Of a stretch of 64,000 nucleotides of DNA, positions 22,301 through 30,291 are shown one piece after another. The stretch is taken from contig JALSIB010000038.1 in NCBI GenBank assembly GCA_026981855.1, positions 62,001-126,000 on the forward strand. The letters are read 5' to 3'. How positions within the stretch are numbered: position 1 is the first letter of the stretch; each line of letters begins with the position of its first letter. A program made the position numbers and the translations under genes. The notes beneath the pieces were generated by a model. It saw nothing but the letters and a program-made list of their open reading frames with translations, had not been told where the DNA came from and ran no database searches. Source of the DNA: Methylothermaceae bacterium (GTDB taxonomy: Bacteria; Pseudomonadota; Gammaproteobacteria; Methylococcales; Methylothermaceae).

Positions 22301-24217
22301 ATGAAGCTGGAATTCCATTCTGAGAAGCTTGCGGCAGGTCGTTTTTGGTGCGGTTTGGTCATTTTTCTTTGGTTGCTTGCCTTCCCTTTTCCCTCCCTCG
22401 CGTCACAAGGGGATCTGGACAATGATGGCGATGTGGATCGCGACGATCTCACTATCCTGTTGGCCGATCGCAACAAGCCGGTAGAGCAGAGTAACTGTGG
22501 TTCCGCCTGTGACTTGGATGGGGACGGTGTCATCACCGTGCTGGATGCCAGAAAGCTGGTACTTTTATGTACTCTGCCCCGATGCGCCGTCGTCTCCCAC
22601 GAAAACCAACCACCCGTGGCTGATGCGGGAGTCGATCAGGTCATAGCCCTTCCACAGGGGCAGGACGCTCTGGATGTTCAGCTGGATGCCAGTGGTTCGG
22701 GCGATCCCGACGGCACGGTAACAGCCTTTGTTTGGTCCGGCAGCCCCGATCCAGATGACATTTCCCGTCCGACAGTCAGTCTGACGGCGGGTTTTTATAC
22801 ATTCAGGCTGGTGGTTCAGGATGACAAGGGGGCGGTGAGTGGCCCCGACGAGGTGATCGTGAGGATCCTCGGTCCGCCGGAGTTGCTCCCCCTCCCGCGA
22901 GTGACGTCGGCGCCGACCGTGGTGTTGCGGGGGCAGACCCTGCCCGGGGTCGGGGTGGTCGTGCGGGGCGGCAGGCAGGAGGTGAGTGGAACCGCTTCAC
23001 CGGACAGCGGTTTTTTCGCCATTCCGGTCGAACTCAATGAGGGTGAGAACAGGCTGTCAGTCACCGGCAAATATGCGGGTGTCGAAAGTGCCCCTTCGGA
23101 GGTGGTTGTCCGCAGGGAAACCCCTGCGCTGGTGCTGGACAATGTTCAGCCTGAGAGCGGACAGGCTGGGTCCATCGTTACCTTGACCGGTTCAGGGTTC
23201 GTCCCTGACCGCTCGGTCATGGGCGTGTTCTTCAAGGGGAATGGCCTGGAAGGGACGGGTTTCGTGTTGGAGGTGACCGAGACAACGATGAAGGTGGCCG
23301 TTCCCTTCGTGTTTTTGGGGGTGACCGAGGAACAGGATCTCCAGGTCCAGGTCTTCAGCGATACCGATGTCTCCAACTTCATATCCTTTCATATCGTACC
23401 TCCCCAGGATCCCACCCCTGCGGAACGGGGAAACGAAACCGTGGCCCAATTCGATCTCTTGCTGACCCAGATCCAGGAAACCTCGGGCAAGCTGGAGCAG
23501 TTGGTCCATCCGTACGTTCCCGCTGACACCTGGACCTCCATCGAGGAAAACATGCGCCGCCTGGAAGCTTTTGTGCGGGAGGGGCGGGCAGAGATCCTCA
23601 ACACCCGAAGCCCGGACCAGCTTTCAAAGCTGGATGCGGTGTTCGCCAGCGATATCCTTTTGCTGGTCAATCAAAAGCTCGAGCAGGTCAACGAACTGCT
23701 CAGCCATTCCAGTTACGGGGAAGCGGCCTGCAATGTCGGTGAGGTTCTCCAGATCCTCAACGATGTCATCGGCATCTTGGATTGGGTCCACGGGGCACTC
23801 TATGCTGCAGAGGCCGTTTGTTTCTTCTTCTGCCAACCCGCACTGCCCGTGATCATTGCGGCGGAAGAGATCGTCGGTGCCGTGCTCGACGTGCTGGAAT
23901 CCATCCGCGACATTCTCGACGTGGCGGTGCCATCCAGGGCGGACCCGACGAGTTGGCACGTCGACATCGTCACTCCCTATCCAGGCACAGACCCCCACCT
24001 CTTGTTCACCGATACCCGGGATACTCTGACCCTCTACACGGACTTCACCAATGGTGGGGCCAACCGGCTCGTCGGCAGGTTTTCCTCCCTGGGGGGGGGT
24101 GGTGCTCGATCTTCTGGATATCGACATCGGTCGCATCACTGTCGAGGACGTCCAGGTTCCCTCGACTGCAGCCAGTTTCGATGTTTCGTTGATCAACAAT
24201 CTCACCACCGGGGATGA
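22301..24217 (+). CDS. Giant dockerin-like/PKD/IPT surface protein, N-terminal part (frame ends after G9 tract)
   Basis: Secreted multidomain protein whose frame breaks at a G9 run. As read, this part is 638 residues, the last 40 being out-of-frame junk after 24099. Domains: signal peptide (1-35, hydrophobic FWCGLVIFLWLLAFPFP), dockerin-like pair of EF-hand loops (about 37-95: DLDNDGDVDRDD and DLDGDGVITVLDARK), a PKD-like domain (about 101-190: PPVADAGVDQ, DASGSGDPDG), an Ig-like segment (about 195-275), an IPT/TIG domain (about 280-365: VQPESGQAGSIVTLTGSGF) and a helical region (about 380-545). GAGGG precedes the ATG. The rest of the protein continues one base later in the frame ending at 29618; with eight G the product would be 2438 residues. 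Confidence 0.85.
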   Translation: MKLEFHSEKLAAGRFWCGLVIFLWLLAFPFPSLASQGDLDNDGDVDRDDLTILLADRNKPVEQSNCGSACDLDGDGVITVLDARKLVLLCTLPRCAVVSHENQPPVADAGVDQVIALPQGQDALDVQLDASGSGDPDGTVTAFVWSGSPDPDDISRPTVSLTAGFYTFRLVVQDDKGAVSGPDEVIVRILGPPELLPLPRVTSAPTVVLRGQTLPGVGVVVRGGRQEVSGTASPDSGFFAIPVELNEGENRLSVTGKYAGVESAPSEVVVRRETPALVLDNVQPESGQAGSIVTLTGSGFVPDRSVMGVFFKGNGLEGTGFVLEVTETTMKVAVPFVFLGVTEEQDLQVQVFSDTDVSNFISFHIVPPQDPTPAERGNETVAQFDLLLTQIQETSGKLEQLVHPYVPADTWTSIEENMRRLEAFVREGRAEILNTRSPDQLSKLDAVFASDILLLVNQKLEQVNELLSHSSYGEAACNVGEVLQILNDVIGILDWVHGALYAAEAVCFFFCQPALPVIIAAEEIVGAVLDVLESIRDILDVAVPSRADPTSWHVDIVTPYPGTDPHLLFTDTRDTLTLYTDFTNGGANRLVGRFSSLGGGGARSSGYRHRSHHCRGRPGSLDCSQFRCFVDQQSHHRG

Positions 24218-27200
24218 TCCTGACCGGGCCGCCGACAGCCACACCTTGCAGGTTAACGGGCTGCCGTCTGGTGTGACCGTCGCCCATACCCAACTCGATG
24301 TCGAAGGCTCATGTGGGCCGTATCACTATCCCGACAAGGTCTGCGTCGGCGCCGCCTGTGCAGGCGGCGACGTGCCGCAATATCCTGACCTGTATGACAT
24401 CACCGTGATCGAGGCGCCGATCATAGAAAACATGGGGTGGAATGACGAGTTCGGGGGATGGGATGTCTCCGGTCTTGGATTCAGCACGCTGTGCGGAGAG
24501 GTTTTTCAGGTCTACTGGAACGGCGGCTTGGTGTCCTGTGGCCAGATCGAAAACCTGACGTGGGAATCCTTTACCGCAACGGGTACCCTTTTCAGTGAGC
24601 CGGGAAGATTCGAACTGGTTTTGGTGGATCCCAGCGATCCCTCCAATCCCGACAAGCATAGGCAGGGCCCTGCCTATGACGTCGGCCTGCCTCCTTACAA
24701 GGAGGTTTCCATCGACCGCGTCATCCCCGCCAGCAACTTCATCGGGGATCTGGTGACCGTGCGCGGAGATCATTTCATTCCTTACCCCGACAGCATCTTC
24801 ATCACCTTCTTTCTCGACCAGGATCGAAACATCACCAAGACCATCCATCCCCAGGCGGTGAACTATGACTGGTTACCTGGCGGATGGGACAGCTTGACCT
24901 TCAAGGTGCCCGAGGAGCTGCGCCGCTATGCGGGCCAGACCATTCCCTTCGAGGTCAGGATCGAGACGGACACGTCCTCCGGTCAAACGCATGCCTCTTC
25001 CGCATTTACGCCCAGGCAGACGGAGAGTGCCGCGTGGGGTGACCAGGATCTCGTCTCTTTTGGGGAAAGCGGGGGTTATGTTCGCAGTGCGGCGGTCGGG
25101 GATATCGATGGCGATGGCATCAACGATCTGGTGGTTGGGGTGCCCGAGGAACGTTCCGGGTTTGGGGCCGTGAATGGAGCTGTCTATATTGCTTTCGGTC
25201 CTGTCGAAGGAGCGTCTTTGCCCACTGGCCAGCAATACATCGATCTGGCTGAAGGCAGCATCGCCTCCAGCCATTGGGACGTGGTGATTTATGGAGACGA
25301 TACGGACTGTTATCTGGATGGGCAGTTCTGCCGCCGCATCGGTGGCGCGCTGGCGCTGGGGGATGTCAATGGGGATGGGGTCAACGACATACTGATCGGC
25401 ACCACGGATCAGAACGATGCCGGGCTACACGATCTCAACACGGAGGTGTTTCAGGGAAACAAAGGACATTTGCCCGGCAAGGCCTTTGTGTTTTTCGGGA
25501 GGTCCCGTGGCCAGTGGAATCGTTGGTATGAAATCGCCCGCGATGAATACGACGTTCTCATCCATGGCGATCTCCAGAGGGAGCTTGGAAAACAGGTGGC
25601 CATCGGCAACCTGAATGGCGATGCCTATGCGGATCTGATCGTCTCCGCTCCTTCACAACCCTATAATGCCAGCCGCCCGGACGACGACTGGTCGGGCAGG
25701 GTGTACGTGATTTTTGGCCAGGAGACGCTGCCACGCGAGATTCAAGTGGATAACGATCTTCGAGCTGCAGTGGCCGGCGTAATCATCAGTGGTGAGAGTG
25801 AACCCCAGGGACAAACGGTATACAAGGGGGACTTGCTGGGTGAAGGACTGGCGGTCGGCGACATGGACGGGGACGGCCGGGACGATCTTGCCGTGGGGGC
25901 CCCCGGTTTCTTCAATTCTGCTTTTGATGTCCATTATAGAAAGGGAGCGGTTTTTCTGTTCCGGGGTGCAGGATCCTTCGATAGGCCTGGTCATCTGGTC
26001 GCCAGCAGATCGGCCGATCTGGGCGATCAGGATCTTCTCATCGCCGGGCCGACATCCCCGCAGTCTCCTCATCCCCTGCATCGGGGGTGGGAGATCGGGC
26101 GCAGCCTAGTCATAGGGGACCTCGATGGGGATGGCAAGGGGGAACTTGTTCTGGCCGCACCCGATGAATATCTCGATTATCAAGCGATCATCGGCATGCC
26201 TTCGATTCACGAGGATCATATCGGTAGGATTTATCTGATCGAAGGCTCTGCCCTCTCCGGTTCCGGCGGTCAGAGTGTCGTCGATCTGGCCAGGGCGATC
26301 ATTCATGGCACCACGACGATTTCCCGTTTGGGTGGCGCGATGGCGGTAGGGGATGTGAATCTGGATGGTTTCCTGGATCTTGTCGCAGGGGCCCCCGGAA
26401 AACAGGGGTCGGAAGAACCCGGGAGTGTATGGGGTTTCCATGGGTCACCGCAACTGCCCAGTGGGGAGATCCATCTGACCGATCGCTCGGGGGTTCCCGA
26501 GGATTTCATTATCCGTGGGGACCAGGCCCACCCCGAGTCAGCAGGAGGTTTCGGGTCCTTCGTTACGGTGGGGGACCTGGCGCCGTTTGCAGGCGATGAC
26601 GTGATCGTCGTCGATCCGTTGGCGAGGGCACCCGAGCCCTCCGATCCTGCCCACCAGACATGGCGGGAAAAAGCAGGAATGCTTTATGCCTTTTATGAGG
26701 GTGCCCAGTTGTTTTTGCCGCGGATATCGGTATCGCCTGCCAGTGTTGATTTCGGGCAGATCAGTGGCGGCTTCGATCGCAGTGAAACCATTGATGTGGT
26801 CAATATCGGTAGTGGGCGGCTGTTTATCGCTTCTGTGGGTACGACGACCTTTTCACCCTGGTTCAGCCAGACGAACGATTGCAGTGGCCGTTATCTCTTG
26901 CCTCACGATCGTTGCGCCATTTCGGTTTCCCTTGCCACACGTGTGCCTGGGACTTACAGCGGCATCTTGCAGATCATTTCGAACGATCCGGACCAGGGGG
27001 TGATCGATATTCCCGTCCAGGTGGATATTTTGTCCAGCCCGGACATCCAGGTTGCCCCCCGGGATATCGAATTCACCGGTGTGCCTTTGGGGACCACAGC
27101 CTCCCGGGAGGTGACGGTTACCAATGAAGGCAATGCAGCTCTTCGACTGGCTTCTTTTGACCTGAGCGCCTCCGTTCATTATTCGTTCTCGGAGGCTTGT

Positions 27201-29618
27201 CCGGAGGTGCTGGAGCCGCAGGCGAGCTGTAAGGTGACAGTTACGTACGATCCCGGCAATCAGGTCAATGTCACCCATTGGGCAACGTTGGCTGTCCTGT
27301 CCGACGATCCCGATGAGCCGCGGGTCGAGGTGAATCTGTCCGGCCATGGCGTGCCTCCCTTTATCTCGGTGATTCCGACGATCGTGTCTTTCGGCAGCGA
27401 TTTGTCCGAAGTCCAGATTACGCTCAACAACACCAGCGATTCGGCCGCTCTGCAGTGGAATCTTACAGAGGATCTTCCGGCATGGTTGAGTGTTTCCGAA
27501 TATGGCGGTGTTCTTCCTCCACAGGGCAGTAAGACATTGCTGTTGAATGTCGACAGGAGTGGCCTTGCGGCCGGGTCCTACGCTCATACCCTCACCATCG
27601 TTTCCAATGGGGGTAGTCAGTCGGTTTCCCTGTCCATGGAAGCCCCAACCTTCCTTTCTGCTTCTCCTGCATCGATTGAGTTCGGACAGGCCAGGCAGTG
27701 GGCGGTACTGCCAATCCGAAACACCAGCAACTCGGATACGGTGCTCGAGTGGCAAATCGAGGATGCGCTCCCCCCCTGGCTGTCTGCTTCCCCTTCGTCT
27801 GGCCAGGTGCCAGTGGGGTCAACCCAGAGTGTGCTGCTTTCGGTGGACCGTAGCGGCCTTGCCGTCGGGGAATACCAGCATACGCTTTCCCTGATTTCGA
27901 ACGGCGGGAATCAACAGATCGGGATCGCCCTGACAGTGGCGGAGCCGCTGGTCTCCTTCGCCCATGCCTTTGGCGGTGAAGGGGGTGAATATGCGGCTGC
28001 CGTCCGGGTGACTTCCGACGGTGGGTTCATACTTATCGGCCTTACCAACTCCTTTGGCGGCGGCAACGAAGACGTCTGGCTCCTGAAACTGGATGGAAAT
28101 GGCCATCTCCAGTGGGAGAAGACAATCGGTGCCATCAACGCGGAACGTGGCTACGATATCCAGGAAACCGCCGACCACGGCTATGTTCTGGTGGCGGGCG
28201 GACTGGATGACGACGGCGATTACAATCTTCTGGTGTTCAAGCTGACCTCGCAGGGCGAGATCGAGTGGCAGAGATCCTATGGCGGCAGCCCCGATGACAA
28301 CTGGGGAGCTTGGGGTATCAACTTCAGTATTCGCCAAACCGGCGAGGGAGGATATGTCGTTGCCGGTAATACCCAGGGCTTCGGTGCAGCGAGAGACGAT
28401 GTCTGGATCCTCAAACTCGATGCCCGTGGCGAGGTGGAGTGGCAGAAACGCTACGGCGGCAGCGGCGACGACTACGCCAACTGGATCGAGCAGACGGAGG
28501 ATGCGGGTTACATCGTCGCGGGGGTGACGGAATCCTTCGGAGCGGGCGGTCCTGACATATGGGTGCTCAAGCTGGATGCCAGTGGTGAAGTTGAGTGGCA
28601 GAAGACCTACGGGGGCAGTGACTGGGATCTGGGCTATACCATCCGGCCGACCACCGATGGCGGATACGTGCTGCTCGGCACCACATTCACTTTCGGCGGG
28701 GCCTGGGTGCTCAAGCTCGACGCCTCGGGTGATGTCACCTGGCAGAAGGCTTATGGCGGATTCGATGGACGCGGCACTGATATCCGCCAGACCCAGGAGG
28801 GGGGTTATATCCTCAGTGGGTCCCTCTATACGCCTGGAGGAGGAACCGATGCCTGGTTGCTCAAGCTGGATGCGGCCGGAGAAATCGAGTGGCAGCGGAC
28901 CTACGGTGGCGACAGGGTGGATGAATTCCTCACCGTGGAGCAGACACCCGAAGGCGGTTTTGTGGCAGGGGGGGACAGTTGGTCGTTCAGGTCGGATCAA
29001 TATGGCGCTGATGTCGAACTCTGGGTGGTCCGGACCGACCGGTGGGGCAGTCTGGGCAACGTCTGCAATAACGTCAAAGTGCCACAGGTGTCGGCGGTGG
29101 CCACGGACGTCATTCCTCAGCAGAGCAGCGTGGACCCCATAGAAACCACGGCAGAACCGGTTGAGTTGGGATTTGCTTCCATGGATTCCGCAAGTGATGT
29201 TCAAGCCGTCTGTCTCTTGACCGAGAGCGAATGGCAACAGATGGAAGATCTGGACATCAATGACATACCCGCAAATCTGGATTTCAGCGCGGTGCCTGTC
29301 GAGCCCGGAGTGAGGGTCAGTCAATCCATCGTCGTTCAGAATCTTGGGCGTGCGGAAAGGCTGACTTTGGATCTCAGCCTTCTTGGCGATCCGGATTTCA
29401 CACTGTTCAGCAGTTGTCCTGACCAGCTTCTGCCGGCGCAGAGCTGCAATGTGGATGTTTCGTTCAGTCCCCAACAGGAGGGGGAACGCTCCGCCCGGCT
29501 GATCGTTCAATCCAACGACCCGGATGAAAGCACCTTTCAGGTGGACATCACGGGAACGGGCCAGGAATGTATTAAGTGCGAGGGTGGTTCCATTATTCCG
29601 GTTCCAGGAGGAGGTTAG
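24051..29618 (+). CDS. Giant surface protein, C-terminal part: FG-GAP propeller, choice-of-anchor D, BACON-like and second propeller domains
   Basis: Continuation of the preceding gene in the +1 frame; the ATG at 24051 is only the first in-frame start and is probably not used, true homology beginning near 24095 (VVLDLLDIDIGRIT). Counting from 24051: an IPT-like domain (about 205-305), seven FG-GAP/integrin-type blades (about 328-885) with calcium loops such as GDIDGDGINDLVVG, GDVNGDGVNDILIG and GDMDGDGRDDLAVG, two choice-of-anchor D domains (about 890-1100), two BACON-like domains (about 1107-1293, WLSVS and NVDRSGLAAGSY), a second propeller of about seven repeats (1300-1660; DGGYIVAG, WVLKLDASGEVEWQK, YGGS), and a last choice-of-anchor D domain (1730-1836). 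All fit an extracellular adhesion or scaffold protein; no enzyme motif is seen. Confidence 0.85.
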   Translation: MVGPTGSSAGFPPWGGVVLDLLDIDIGRITVEDVQVPSTAASFDVSLINNLTTGDDPDRAADSHTLQVNGLPSGVTVAHTQLDVEGSCGPYHYPDKVCVGAACAGGDVPQYPDLYDITVIEAPIIENMGWNDEFGGWDVSGLGFSTLCGEVFQVYWNGGLVSCGQIENLTWESFTATGTLFSEPGRFELVLVDPSDPSNPDKHRQGPAYDVGLPPYKEVSIDRVIPASNFIGDLVTVRGDHFIPYPDSIFITFFLDQDRNITKTIHPQAVNYDWLPGGWDSLTFKVPEELRRYAGQTIPFEVRIETDTSSGQTHASSAFTPRQTESAAWGDQDLVSFGESGGYVRSAAVGDIDGDGINDLVVGVPEERSGFGAVNGAVYIAFGPVEGASLPTGQQYIDLAEGSIASSHWDVVIYGDDTDCYLDGQFCRRIGGALALGDVNGDGVNDILIGTTDQNDAGLHDLNTEVFQGNKGHLPGKAFVFFGRSRGQWNRWYEIARDEYDVLIHGDLQRELGKQVAIGNLNGDAYADLIVSAPSQPYNASRPDDDWSGRVYVIFGQETLPREIQVDNDLRAAVAGVIISGESEPQGQTVYKGDLLGEGLAVGDMDGDGRDDLAVGAPGFFNSAFDVHYRKGAVFLFRGAGSFDRPGHLVASRSADLGDQDLLIAGPTSPQSPHPLHRGWEIGRSLVIGDLDGDGKGELVLAAPDEYLDYQAIIGMPSIHEDHIGRIYLIEGSALSGSGGQSVVDLARAIIHGTTTISRLGGAMAVGDVNLDGFLDLVAGAPGKQGSEEPGSVWGFHGSPQLPSGEIHLTDRSGVPEDFIIRGDQAHPESAGGFGSFVTVGDLAPFAGDDVIVVDPLARAPEPSDPAHQTWREKAGMLYAFYEGAQLFLPRISVSPASVDFGQISGGFDRSETIDVVNIGSGRLFIASVGTTTFSPWFSQTNDCSGRYLLPHDRCAISVSLATRVPGTYSGILQIISNDPDQGVIDIPVQVDILSSPDIQVAPRDIEFTGVPLGTTASREVTVTNEGNAALRLASFDLSASVHYSFSEACPEVLEPQASCKVTVTYDPGNQVNVTHWATLAVLSDDPDEPRVEVNLSGHGVPPFISVIPTIVSFGSDLSEVQITLNNTSDSAALQWNLTEDLPAWLSVSEYGGVLPPQGSKTLLLNVDRSGLAAGSYAHTLTIVSNGGSQSVSLSMEAPTFLSASPASIEFGQARQWAVLPIRNTSNSDTVLEWQIEDALPPWLSASPSSGQVPVGSTQSVLLSVDRSGLAVGEYQHTLSLISNGGNQQIGIALTVAEPLVSFAHAFGGEGGEYAAAVRVTSDGGFILIGLTNSFGGGNEDVWLLKLDGNGHLQWEKTIGAINAERGYDIQETADHGYVLVAGGLDDDGDYNLLVFKLTSQGEIEWQRSYGGSPDDNWGAWGINFSIRQTGEGGYVVAGNTQGFGAARDDVWILKLDARGEVEWQKRYGGSGDDYANWIEQTEDAGYIVAGVTESFGAGGPDIWVLKLDASGEVEWQKTYGGSDWDLGYTIRPTTDGGYVLLGTTFTFGGAWVLKLDASGDVTWQKAYGGFDGRGTDIRQTQEGGYILSGSLYTPGGGTDAWLLKLDAAGEIEWQRTYGGDRVDEFLTVEQTPEGGFVAGGDSWSFRSDQYGADVELWVVRTDRWGSLGNVCNNVKVPQVSAVATDVIPQQSSVDPIETTAEPVELGFASMDSASDVQAVCLLTESEWQQMEDLDINDIPANLDFSAVPVEPGVRVSQSIVVQNLGRAERLTLDLSLLGDPDFTLFSSCPDQLLPAQSCNVDVSFSPQQEGERSARLIVQSNDPDESTFQVDITGTGQECIKCEGGSIIPVPGGG
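24091..24099 (+). repeat. Nine-G homopolymer at the frameshift, candidate phase-variation tract
   Basis: The run sits exactly where the reading frame of the giant protein changes. The upstream frame continues to 24217, the downstream frame is open across it; removal of one G (or gain of two) makes a single 2438-residue frame. Slipped-strand mispairing at such tracts is a known ON/OFF switch; a sequencing error or fixed mutation gives the same picture. Confidence 0.75.
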
Positions 29619-29685
29619 CCAGCGACTTCCAGGGATGGTTGGGAGCGGAAATTCCACCCAATGAAAATTGCAAGAGGATAGGGAG

Positions 29686-30291
29686 ATGAAAAAGAAATCA
29701 ATATGTTATGGATTGTTTCTAGTCGTCACTTTCTTGCTGGGCATTTCTTCCGCCCGGGCGATCACCCTGGGCTTCGAGCCCGCGAATCAGGATGTTCCCT
29801 TTGGCGCCAGCGTGGAGGTGGGGGTGGCCCTATCCGATCTGGGAGCCGGCACCACCCCCTCGCTCGGCACCTATGACCTGGACATCTCTTTCGATCCCGC
29901 CGTGCTCGGTTTTACGGGGGTTAGCTTTGGCGATCCCGTCTTGGGGAACCAGCTTGATTTATTTGGCCTTGGAAGCGTGCAGAGTAGCGACTTGGGAGGC
30001 GGCGTTGTCAACGTATTTGAACTATCGTTGGATCTTATAACGGATCTGATCGCCTTACAGGCGGGGGATTTCACCTTGTTTACCCTCTCCTTCGATACCC
30101 TGAGCCGGGGGATCAGTCCGTTATCCATTTCCATCAATGCGCTGGGTGATGAAAATGGAAATCCTCTGGATGCTGATACCACCGCTGGTTCCATCTCGGT
30201 GCCCGAGCCTGACTCGCTGCTTCTATTGGGGTTGGGTCTTGCCGGGCTGATGCGATTCAGGTACTTGAGGGGCGCGAGGTGCTCTTCCTGA
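29686..30291 (+). CDS. Cohesin-like PEP-CTERM sorting-signal protein
   Basis: A 201-residue exported protein. It has a signal peptide (KKKSICYGLFLVVTFLLG, cleavage near ARA), a beta-rich body of about 145 residues that matches the cohesin-like PEP-CTERM pattern (LGTYDLDISFDPAVLGFTGV, then FTLFTLSFDTLSRG and ALGDENGNPLD), and a C-terminal VPEPDSLLLLGLGLAGLMRF helix with arginines, the PEP-CTERM signal processed by exosortase. The ATG at 29686 has AGAGGATAGGGAG upstream and is preferred to a TTG at 29668. It lies 67 bases after the giant dockerin-like gene, so a cohesin-dockerin pair anchored at the envelope is a reasonable inference. Confidence 0.85.
   Translation: MKKKSICYGLFLVVTFLLGISSARAITLGFEPANQDVPFGASVEVGVALSDLGAGTTPSLGTYDLDISFDPAVLGFTGVSFGDPVLGNQLDLFGLGSVQSSDLGGGVVNVFELSLDLITDLIALQAGDFTLFTLSFDTLSRGISPLSISINALGDENGNPLDADTTAGSISVPEPDSLLLLGLGLAGLMRFRYLRGARCSS

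What the first reader, a model, noticed from the sequence alone, without database searches (positions are those of the whole stretch)
22301..30291. Cohesin-like PEP-CTERM protein beside a dockerin-like giant protein: possible non-cellulosomal surface assembly
The giant protein begins with paired EF-hand dockerin-like loops, and the next gene encodes a cohesin-like body with a PEP-CTERM anchor signal. Dockerin binding to cohesin is established in cellulosomes. Here there is no glycosidase module: the giant protein is two beta-propellers plus PKD, IPT, BACON-like and anchor-D domains. This suggests an envelope-displayed adhesion or matrix complex, calcium-dependent, anchored through exosortase sorting.
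Basis: partly seen in the sequence, partly recalled or inferred. Interest (0 to 1): 0.75.

Follow-up and report, generated by a model that had tools for sequence, protein, structure and literature searches.

The report
Plug-and-socket surface anchor in methanotrophs
Methane-oxidising bacteria and their relatives repeatedly pair a small cell-surface anchor protein bearing a 'socket' (cohesin) with a neighbouring gene for a secreted protein bearing the matching 'plug' (dockerin), so the parts known from cellulose-digesting machines seem to be used here as a general way to hang non-cellulase proteins on the cell surface.

Summary
The finding is real, and larger than reported. Window 29686-30291 encodes a secreted cohesin with a PEP-CTERM tail; its predicted fold matches solved cohesins (Z 17.3). 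Window 22301-22597 starts a giant protein with a dockerin whose two calcium loops are complete. The genome has exosortase A in an exopolysaccharide locus.

One correction: the giant gene is broken in this assembly. A run of nine G (24091-24099) separates two frames, so it is one gene with a 1-base slip (assembly error, switch or mutation).

The pair is one case of a conserved two-gene module. In Methylococcales plus other orders, 51 of 60 PEP-CTERM-like cohesin genes have a dockerin gene beside them on the same strand. In a sample from other orders, all 10 genomes with this dockerin subclass also have the cohesin, always next door. Paired dockerins and cohesins co-diverge (Mantel r 0.68; 0.90 within one genus). 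Cargo varies: propellers, nucleases, proteases, cytochrome peroxidase, RHS giants. No glycosidase catalytic domain turned up among the cargos scanned.

Best reading: an exosortase-sorted single-cohesin anchor that holds a dockerin-tagged cargo on the envelope. Binding itself is untested. The parts are known; this conserved combination was not found described in the open-access papers searched.

The parts
22301..24217 (+). 5' part of the giant dockerin protein (frame 2): signal peptide, dockerin, PKD, IPT/TIG, then a helical region of unknown type; real coding ends at the G9 run
22400..22597 (+). dockerin, subclass with CTxxxC tail (..GDLDNDGDVDRDDL..DLDGDGVITVLDARKLVLLCTLPRCAVVS); both 12-residue calcium loops complete
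   Evidence: PF00404; alignment; PDB profile match 2y3n E 2.8e-8
24091..24099 (+). run of nine G where the coding frame switches; longest G or C run in the window
   Evidence: codon-usage score per frame
24051..29618 (+). 3' part of the giant protein (frame 0; coding from the G9 run): FG-GAP propeller, choice-of-anchor D, BACON-like, second repeat block, C-terminal anchor D; no C-terminal sorting tail
29686..30291 (+). cohesin PEP-CTERM protein, 201 aa: signal peptide, one cohesin, sorting tail
29794..30201 (+). cohesin domain
   Evidence: PF00963; VIA-align Z 17.3 to 6kgc_A, 139 residues, rmsd 2.2
30196..30261 (+). PEP-CTERM sorting tail (VPEPDSLLLLGLGLAGLMRFRYLR)
   Evidence: PF07589 33.4 bits

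Best explanation
A two-gene surface-display module. Both proteins leave the cytoplasm by signal peptides. The small protein is sorted by exosortase A through its PEP-CTERM tail and stays on, or is handed to, the outer envelope or exopolysaccharide. Its single cohesin is the socket. The neighbouring secreted cargo has no sorting tail of its own and carries a calcium-loaded dockerin, which plugs into that cohesin and so fixes the cargo at the surface. In the window the cargo is a giant multi-domain protein (propeller, Ig-like, BACON and anchor-D domains) that probably makes contact with a surface, matrix or other cells. Shown by computation: domains, fold, calcium-loop residues, sorting tail, exosortase, gene pairing, co-divergence, absence of a sorting tail on cargo. 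Inferred: binding, calcium dependence, place of attachment, and the adhesive role of this cargo. As assembled, the giant is off-frame, so whether it is made at present depends on the true length of the G run.
For: Cohesin fold of the window protein (pLDDT 89.9; Foldseek top 50 hits all cohesins; Z 17.3). Dockerin loop residues and profile match to solved dockerins. XrtA 367.8 bits against cut-off 208, fused to EpsI, in a locus with the XrtA-associated ATPase and chain-length protein. 51 of 60 cohesin loci have a same-strand neighbouring dockerin gene and none an opposite-strand one; two further loci with an adjacent dockerin seen by Pfam or a weaker model (L082, L119) are not counted in the 51. 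Sample from other orders: 10 of 10 genomes with the dockerin subclass have the cohesin (hypergeometric p 1e-15), all in neighbouring genes. Mantel r 0.68 over 45 non-redundant pairs and 0.90 within one genus (19 pairs), 0 of 2000 permutations each. 45 of 51 cohesins have a hydrophobic C-terminal tail by a simple cut-off; four more plainly have VPLP-type tails; no cargo has one. Exosortase in 12 of 15 strong-cohesin genomes against 103 of 320 overall (p 1e-4). The own genome holds two such pairs and its PEP-CTERM loci without cohesin have no dockerin near.
Against: No binding measurement and no complex model with a readable interface: the tethered-pair model folds both domains well but pTM is 0.64 and their relative placement cannot be judged. 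Three genomes with the cohesin (two of them 98-99% complete) have no detectable exosortase. In a third sample, 3 of 5 new dockerin genomes had the cohesin next door. The window pair and the second own-genome pair put the dockerin at the N-terminus, unlike 44 of 51 relatives. The giant is frameshifted. Its body has no homologue at the junction region in 200 genomes. Permutation tests do not fully remove shared ancestry.
Confidence: 0.8

Rival explanations
1. Two surface proteins of one operon with cohesin-like and dockerin-like folds that no longer bind each other; the neighbourhood reflects shared regulation only.
For: Operons of surface proteins are common, and several Methylomonas loci carry three more PEP-CTERM genes in the block. 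No binding data.
Against: The dockerin subclass occurs mostly beside this cohesin, with cargos of unrelated families, and dockerin and cohesin co-diverge even inside one genus. Calcium-loop residues are largely kept in the subclass members aligned.
Confidence: 0.1
2. The cohesin works as a carbohydrate- or matrix-binding jelly roll, and the dockerin is just a calcium-stabilised tail; both attach to exopolysaccharide independently.
For: PEP-CTERM proteins are tied to exopolysaccharide (PMC1569441), and cohesin shares a superfamily fold with carbohydrate-binding modules (own knowledge).
Against: All top structural matches are cohesins, many from complexes with dockerins, and the pairing pattern would be unexplained.
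Confidence: 0.06
3. The window locus is a decaying copy: the giant is a pseudogene through the G9 slip and the cohesin is an orphan or serves another dockerin protein.
For: Frame break at G9; no relative of the junction in the order sample; a second pair and a dockerin subtilase exist in the genome.
Against: Both halves are otherwise open over 7.3 kb with coding-like codon use near the break, and G runs are classic sites of sequencing error and of reversible slippage.
Confidence: 0.2

Closest known systems
Non-cellulosomal cohesin and dockerin of Archaeoglobus fulgidus (PDB 2xdh for the cohesin)
   Same: Cohesin fold (2xdh Z 15.7 to the window model); archaeal dockerin-cohesin bonds outside cellulosomes reported as verified (cited in PMC9012536)
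   Different: Archaeal; no PEP-CTERM exosortase tail with a diverse cargo next door described
Cohesin/dockerin proteins of ANME archaea and their sulfate-reducing partners (PMC5244752, PMC9012536, PMC10553843)
   Same: Non-cellulosomal, many pairs, suggested role in cell contact, sometimes adjacent domains
   Different: Different lineages; in the passages read no PEP-CTERM-anchored single cohesin with a neighbouring cargo is described
Clostridial cellulosome with anchoring scaffoldins
   Same: Same two interacting modules; single-cohesin surface anchors exist there too (own knowledge)
   Different: Here no glycosidase cargo, no multi-cohesin scaffoldin in the window, Gram-negative exosortase sorting instead of S-layer or sortase anchoring
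PEP-CTERM/exosortase A system (PMC1569441)
   Same: Sorting tail, XrtA, exopolysaccharide locus
   Different: The 2006 paper mentions neither cohesin nor dockerin; here the sorted protein acts as an adaptor for an untagged cargo

Membership tests
Cohesin (PF00963) | sequence match at curated cut-off | tested here: met
   24.1 bits at cut-off 24.1 in the genome search; 23.8 in the whole-protein scan; borderline
Cohesin (PF00963) | jelly-roll cohesin fold | tested here: met
   model pLDDT 89.9; top 50 Foldseek rows all cohesins; Z 17.3 over 139 residues
Cohesin (PF00963) | binds a dockerin | not testable with these tools
   no complex prediction with readable interface, no experiment
Dockerin type I (PF00404) | two F-hand repeats with calcium ligands at loop positions 1, 3, 5, 12 | tested here: met
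   D5-D7-D9..D16 and D38-D40-D42..D49 of the aligned segment; 26.4 bits, though 20.9 in the whole-protein scan
Dockerin type I (PF00404) | calcium-dependent cohesin binding | not testable with these tools
   no experiment
PEP-CTERM exosortase substrate | signal peptide, PEP motif, hydrophobic helix, basic end | tested here: met
   PF07589 33.4 bits; sequence
PEP-CTERM exosortase substrate | exosortase in the genome | tested here: met
   XrtA 367.8 bits, cut-off 208
PEP-CTERM exosortase substrate | tail cleaved by the exosortase | not testable with these tools
   no experiment
Cellulosome | scaffoldin with several cohesins | tested here: not met
   one cohesin per anchor protein here; only two cohesins in the genome, in separate loci
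Cellulosome | glycoside hydrolase cargo | tested here: not met
   none in the window giant or in the cargos scanned; one weak GH2 sugar-binding match below cut-off

The most novel reading that the evidence does not exclude
A widespread, modular one-anchor-one-cargo display system in Gammaproteobacteria (and, by single loci, some other phyla): exosortase-sorted single cohesins, each holding its own dockerin-tagged cargo, with separate pair classes within one genus, and a dockerin subclass marked by a conserved CTxxxC tail. In the window the cargo may be switched on and off by slippage at a G9 run.
Probability: 0.65. Interest if true: 0.75.

Novelty: new variant of a known kind. Interest (0 to 1): 0.62.

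Why it matters
What cohesins and dockerins do outside cellulosomes is an open question, stated as such in the papers read. Here is a compact, repeated pair with a clear anchor, a clear cargo and cultured laboratory relatives (Methylomonas sp. LW13, M. koyamae, Methylovulum), so the question becomes directly testable. It would also give PEP-CTERM sorting a concrete job: presenting a socket. Natural pairs of different classes would be useful for surface display in methanotroph biotechnology.

Tried and rejected
Searching genome contigs with the broad dockerin alignment failed (too little conserved); a tighter one worked. A sigma-54 promoter (as reported for PEP-CTERM genes) was sought in the window: matches at chance level. 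Tethered-pair modelling through a natural intergenic stop in Methylovulum gave good domains but no readable interface; its structural rows covered only the cohesin half, so the dockerin fold is untested that way. A relative of the giant's junction region was sought to settle the frameshift: none. Cellulosome membership was considered and dropped: single cohesins and no glycosidases. A dockerin subtilase (G000 C52) was considered as an alternative partner; it belongs to another dockerin class, and its relatives in the genus come from genomes with no cohesin match, so it is not counted as part of the module. The key non-cellulosomal review (PMC3035643) is not held, so priority there could not be checked.

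Full report
What is in the window. The gene at 29686-30291 codes for 201 residues: signal peptide, one cohesin (29794-30201), PEP-CTERM tail (30196-30261). AlphaFold2 with 16 sequences gives pLDDT 89.9 and a cohesin-type beta body; the top 50 Foldseek rows are all cohesins, including the non-cellulosomal cohesin of Archaeoglobus fulgidus, and the best structural alignment has Z 17.3 over 139 residues at 2.2 A. A profile of the relatives finds type II cohesins of Acetivibrio in the PDB at E 1.8e-9 by sequence alone. Upstream, a giant gene starts at 22301 with a signal peptide and, at once, a dockerin (22400-22597). Both calcium loops are complete, and a profile of its relatives matches the Bacteroides cellulosolvens Cel48 dockerin (2y3n) at E 2.8e-8. 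Pfam alone is borderline for both domains.

The giant is broken in this assembly. The ORF in frame 2 ends at 24217 and the ORF in frame 0 starts at 24051. Codon usage switches from one frame to the other at 24091-24099, a run of nine G, the longest G or C run in the window. A run of eight would keep one frame. This fits an assembly error, reversible slippage or a real mutation; the tools cannot tell them apart, and no relative of that region was found in 200 genomes of the order.

The genome. It has one exosortase, XrtA fused to EpsI, within an exopolysaccharide locus with the XrtA-associated ATPase, outer membrane protein and chain-length protein. It has six PEP-CTERM proteins over cut-off. 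Two are cohesins. The second cohesin (L102 9453-10148) overlaps by a few bases a gene for a 1030-residue FG-GAP protein with an N-terminal dockerin of the same subclass, below Pfam's threshold. The other PEP-CTERM loci looked at have no dockerin near.

The pair is conserved. In 251 genomes of the order, 34 have a cohesin and 92 a dockerin by Pfam. Flanks of the cohesins were fetched. Counting order and class samples, 51 of 60 cohesin genes of at most 300 residues have a dockerin gene directly beside them on the same strand, none on the opposite strand; the dockerin model was partly built from such neighbours, so this count alone is not independent. The independent test is the class sample: profiles made only from the order were run on genomes of other orders. 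Ten genomes have the dockerin subclass at E below 1e-9; all ten are among the 15 with a full-length cohesin match, p 1e-15, and in all ten the two genes are neighbours, over seven families. With looser thresholds the overlap is 17 of 19 (p 2e-10). A scan of 84,980 named species by dockerin pattern found 31 loci; 14 have the cohesin immediately downstream, including Methylomonas, Methylovulum, Pseudoduganella rivuli, Thalassotalea and single metagenome bins of other groups. A last sample gave 3 of 5 new genomes.

Matching partners. Over 45 non-redundant pairs, cohesin and dockerin similarity correlate (Mantel r 0.68; none of 2000 permutations reach it), and within the one genus with most pairs r is 0.90. 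Two pair classes in one Methylomonas genome have only about 17% identical cohesins and 35-40% identical dockerins. This is what matched plug-and-socket pairs would give; shared ancestry is not fully removed.

Division of labour. The cohesin proteins carry the sorting tail; the dockerin proteins do not. Dockerins are C-terminal in 44, N-terminal in 4 and internal in 3 of 51 partners. Cargo families scanned: FG-GAP, BNR, PD40, NHL and lactonase-type propellers, cadherin/PKD/Ig proteins, subtilase, M6 peptidase, endonuclease I plus exo/endonuclease, glucose/sorbosone dehydrogenase-like, MauG cytochrome peroxidase, IgGFc-binding-like, RHS/teneurin and PASTA giants; no glycoside hydrolase catalytic domain. 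Exosortase is present in 12 of 15 strong-cohesin genomes against 103 of 320 in the sample (p 1e-4), but three lack a detectable one.

Mechanism. The evidence fits an exosortase-sorted single-cohesin anchor that captures its neighbour's dockerin. Binding, calcium dependence and the place of attachment are inferred. A tethered model of a natural neighbouring pair (Methylovulum, read through one stop codon) folds both domains well but does not settle docking.

Novelty. Non-cellulosomal cohesins and dockerins are known from archaea and ANME consortia, and PEP-CTERM sorting since 2006. No paper in the open-access library holds cohesin, dockerin and PEP-CTERM together, nor 'cohesin domain' with PEP-CTERM. 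The library is incomplete and the main review is not held, so 'undescribed' means not found here.

Noticed in passing
window 24091-24099: Nine-G run at the frame switch of the giant gene: a candidate slippage switch or an assembly error.
   Followed up: partly
L088, L089, L097, L100, L122, L124, L126 (Methylomonas-type genomes): Three further PEP/VPLPA-CTERM genes lie directly upstream of the dockerin gene and its cohesin, making a five-gene block.
   Followed up: no
L091, L092; L101:13803-16778; L168:996-3590: Proteins carrying both cohesin and dockerin in one chain (cohesin-dockerin-cohesin, or cohesin first and dockerin last), which could chain head to tail.
   Followed up: no
L136, L166, L167, L171: Extracellular nucleases (endonuclease I, lamin-tail and exo/endonuclease domains; lamin-tail and exo/endonuclease only in L171) ending in this dockerin; the Alteromonas one (L166) has no cohesin within 10 kb.
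   Followed up: partly
L103:923-3406, L105, L106 (own genus): A subtilase with a C-terminal dockerin of another class is kept in at least two other genus members whose genomes have no cohesin match, so its partner is unknown.
   Followed up: partly
L128, L134: Giants with an N-terminal dockerin of this subclass and RHS repeats, with PASTA in one and teneurin-like domains in the other, beside the cohesin gene.
   Followed up: partly
G446, G376, G534: PEP-CTERM-like cohesins in genomes where neither PF09721 nor TIGR04178 finds an exosortase.
   Followed up: partly
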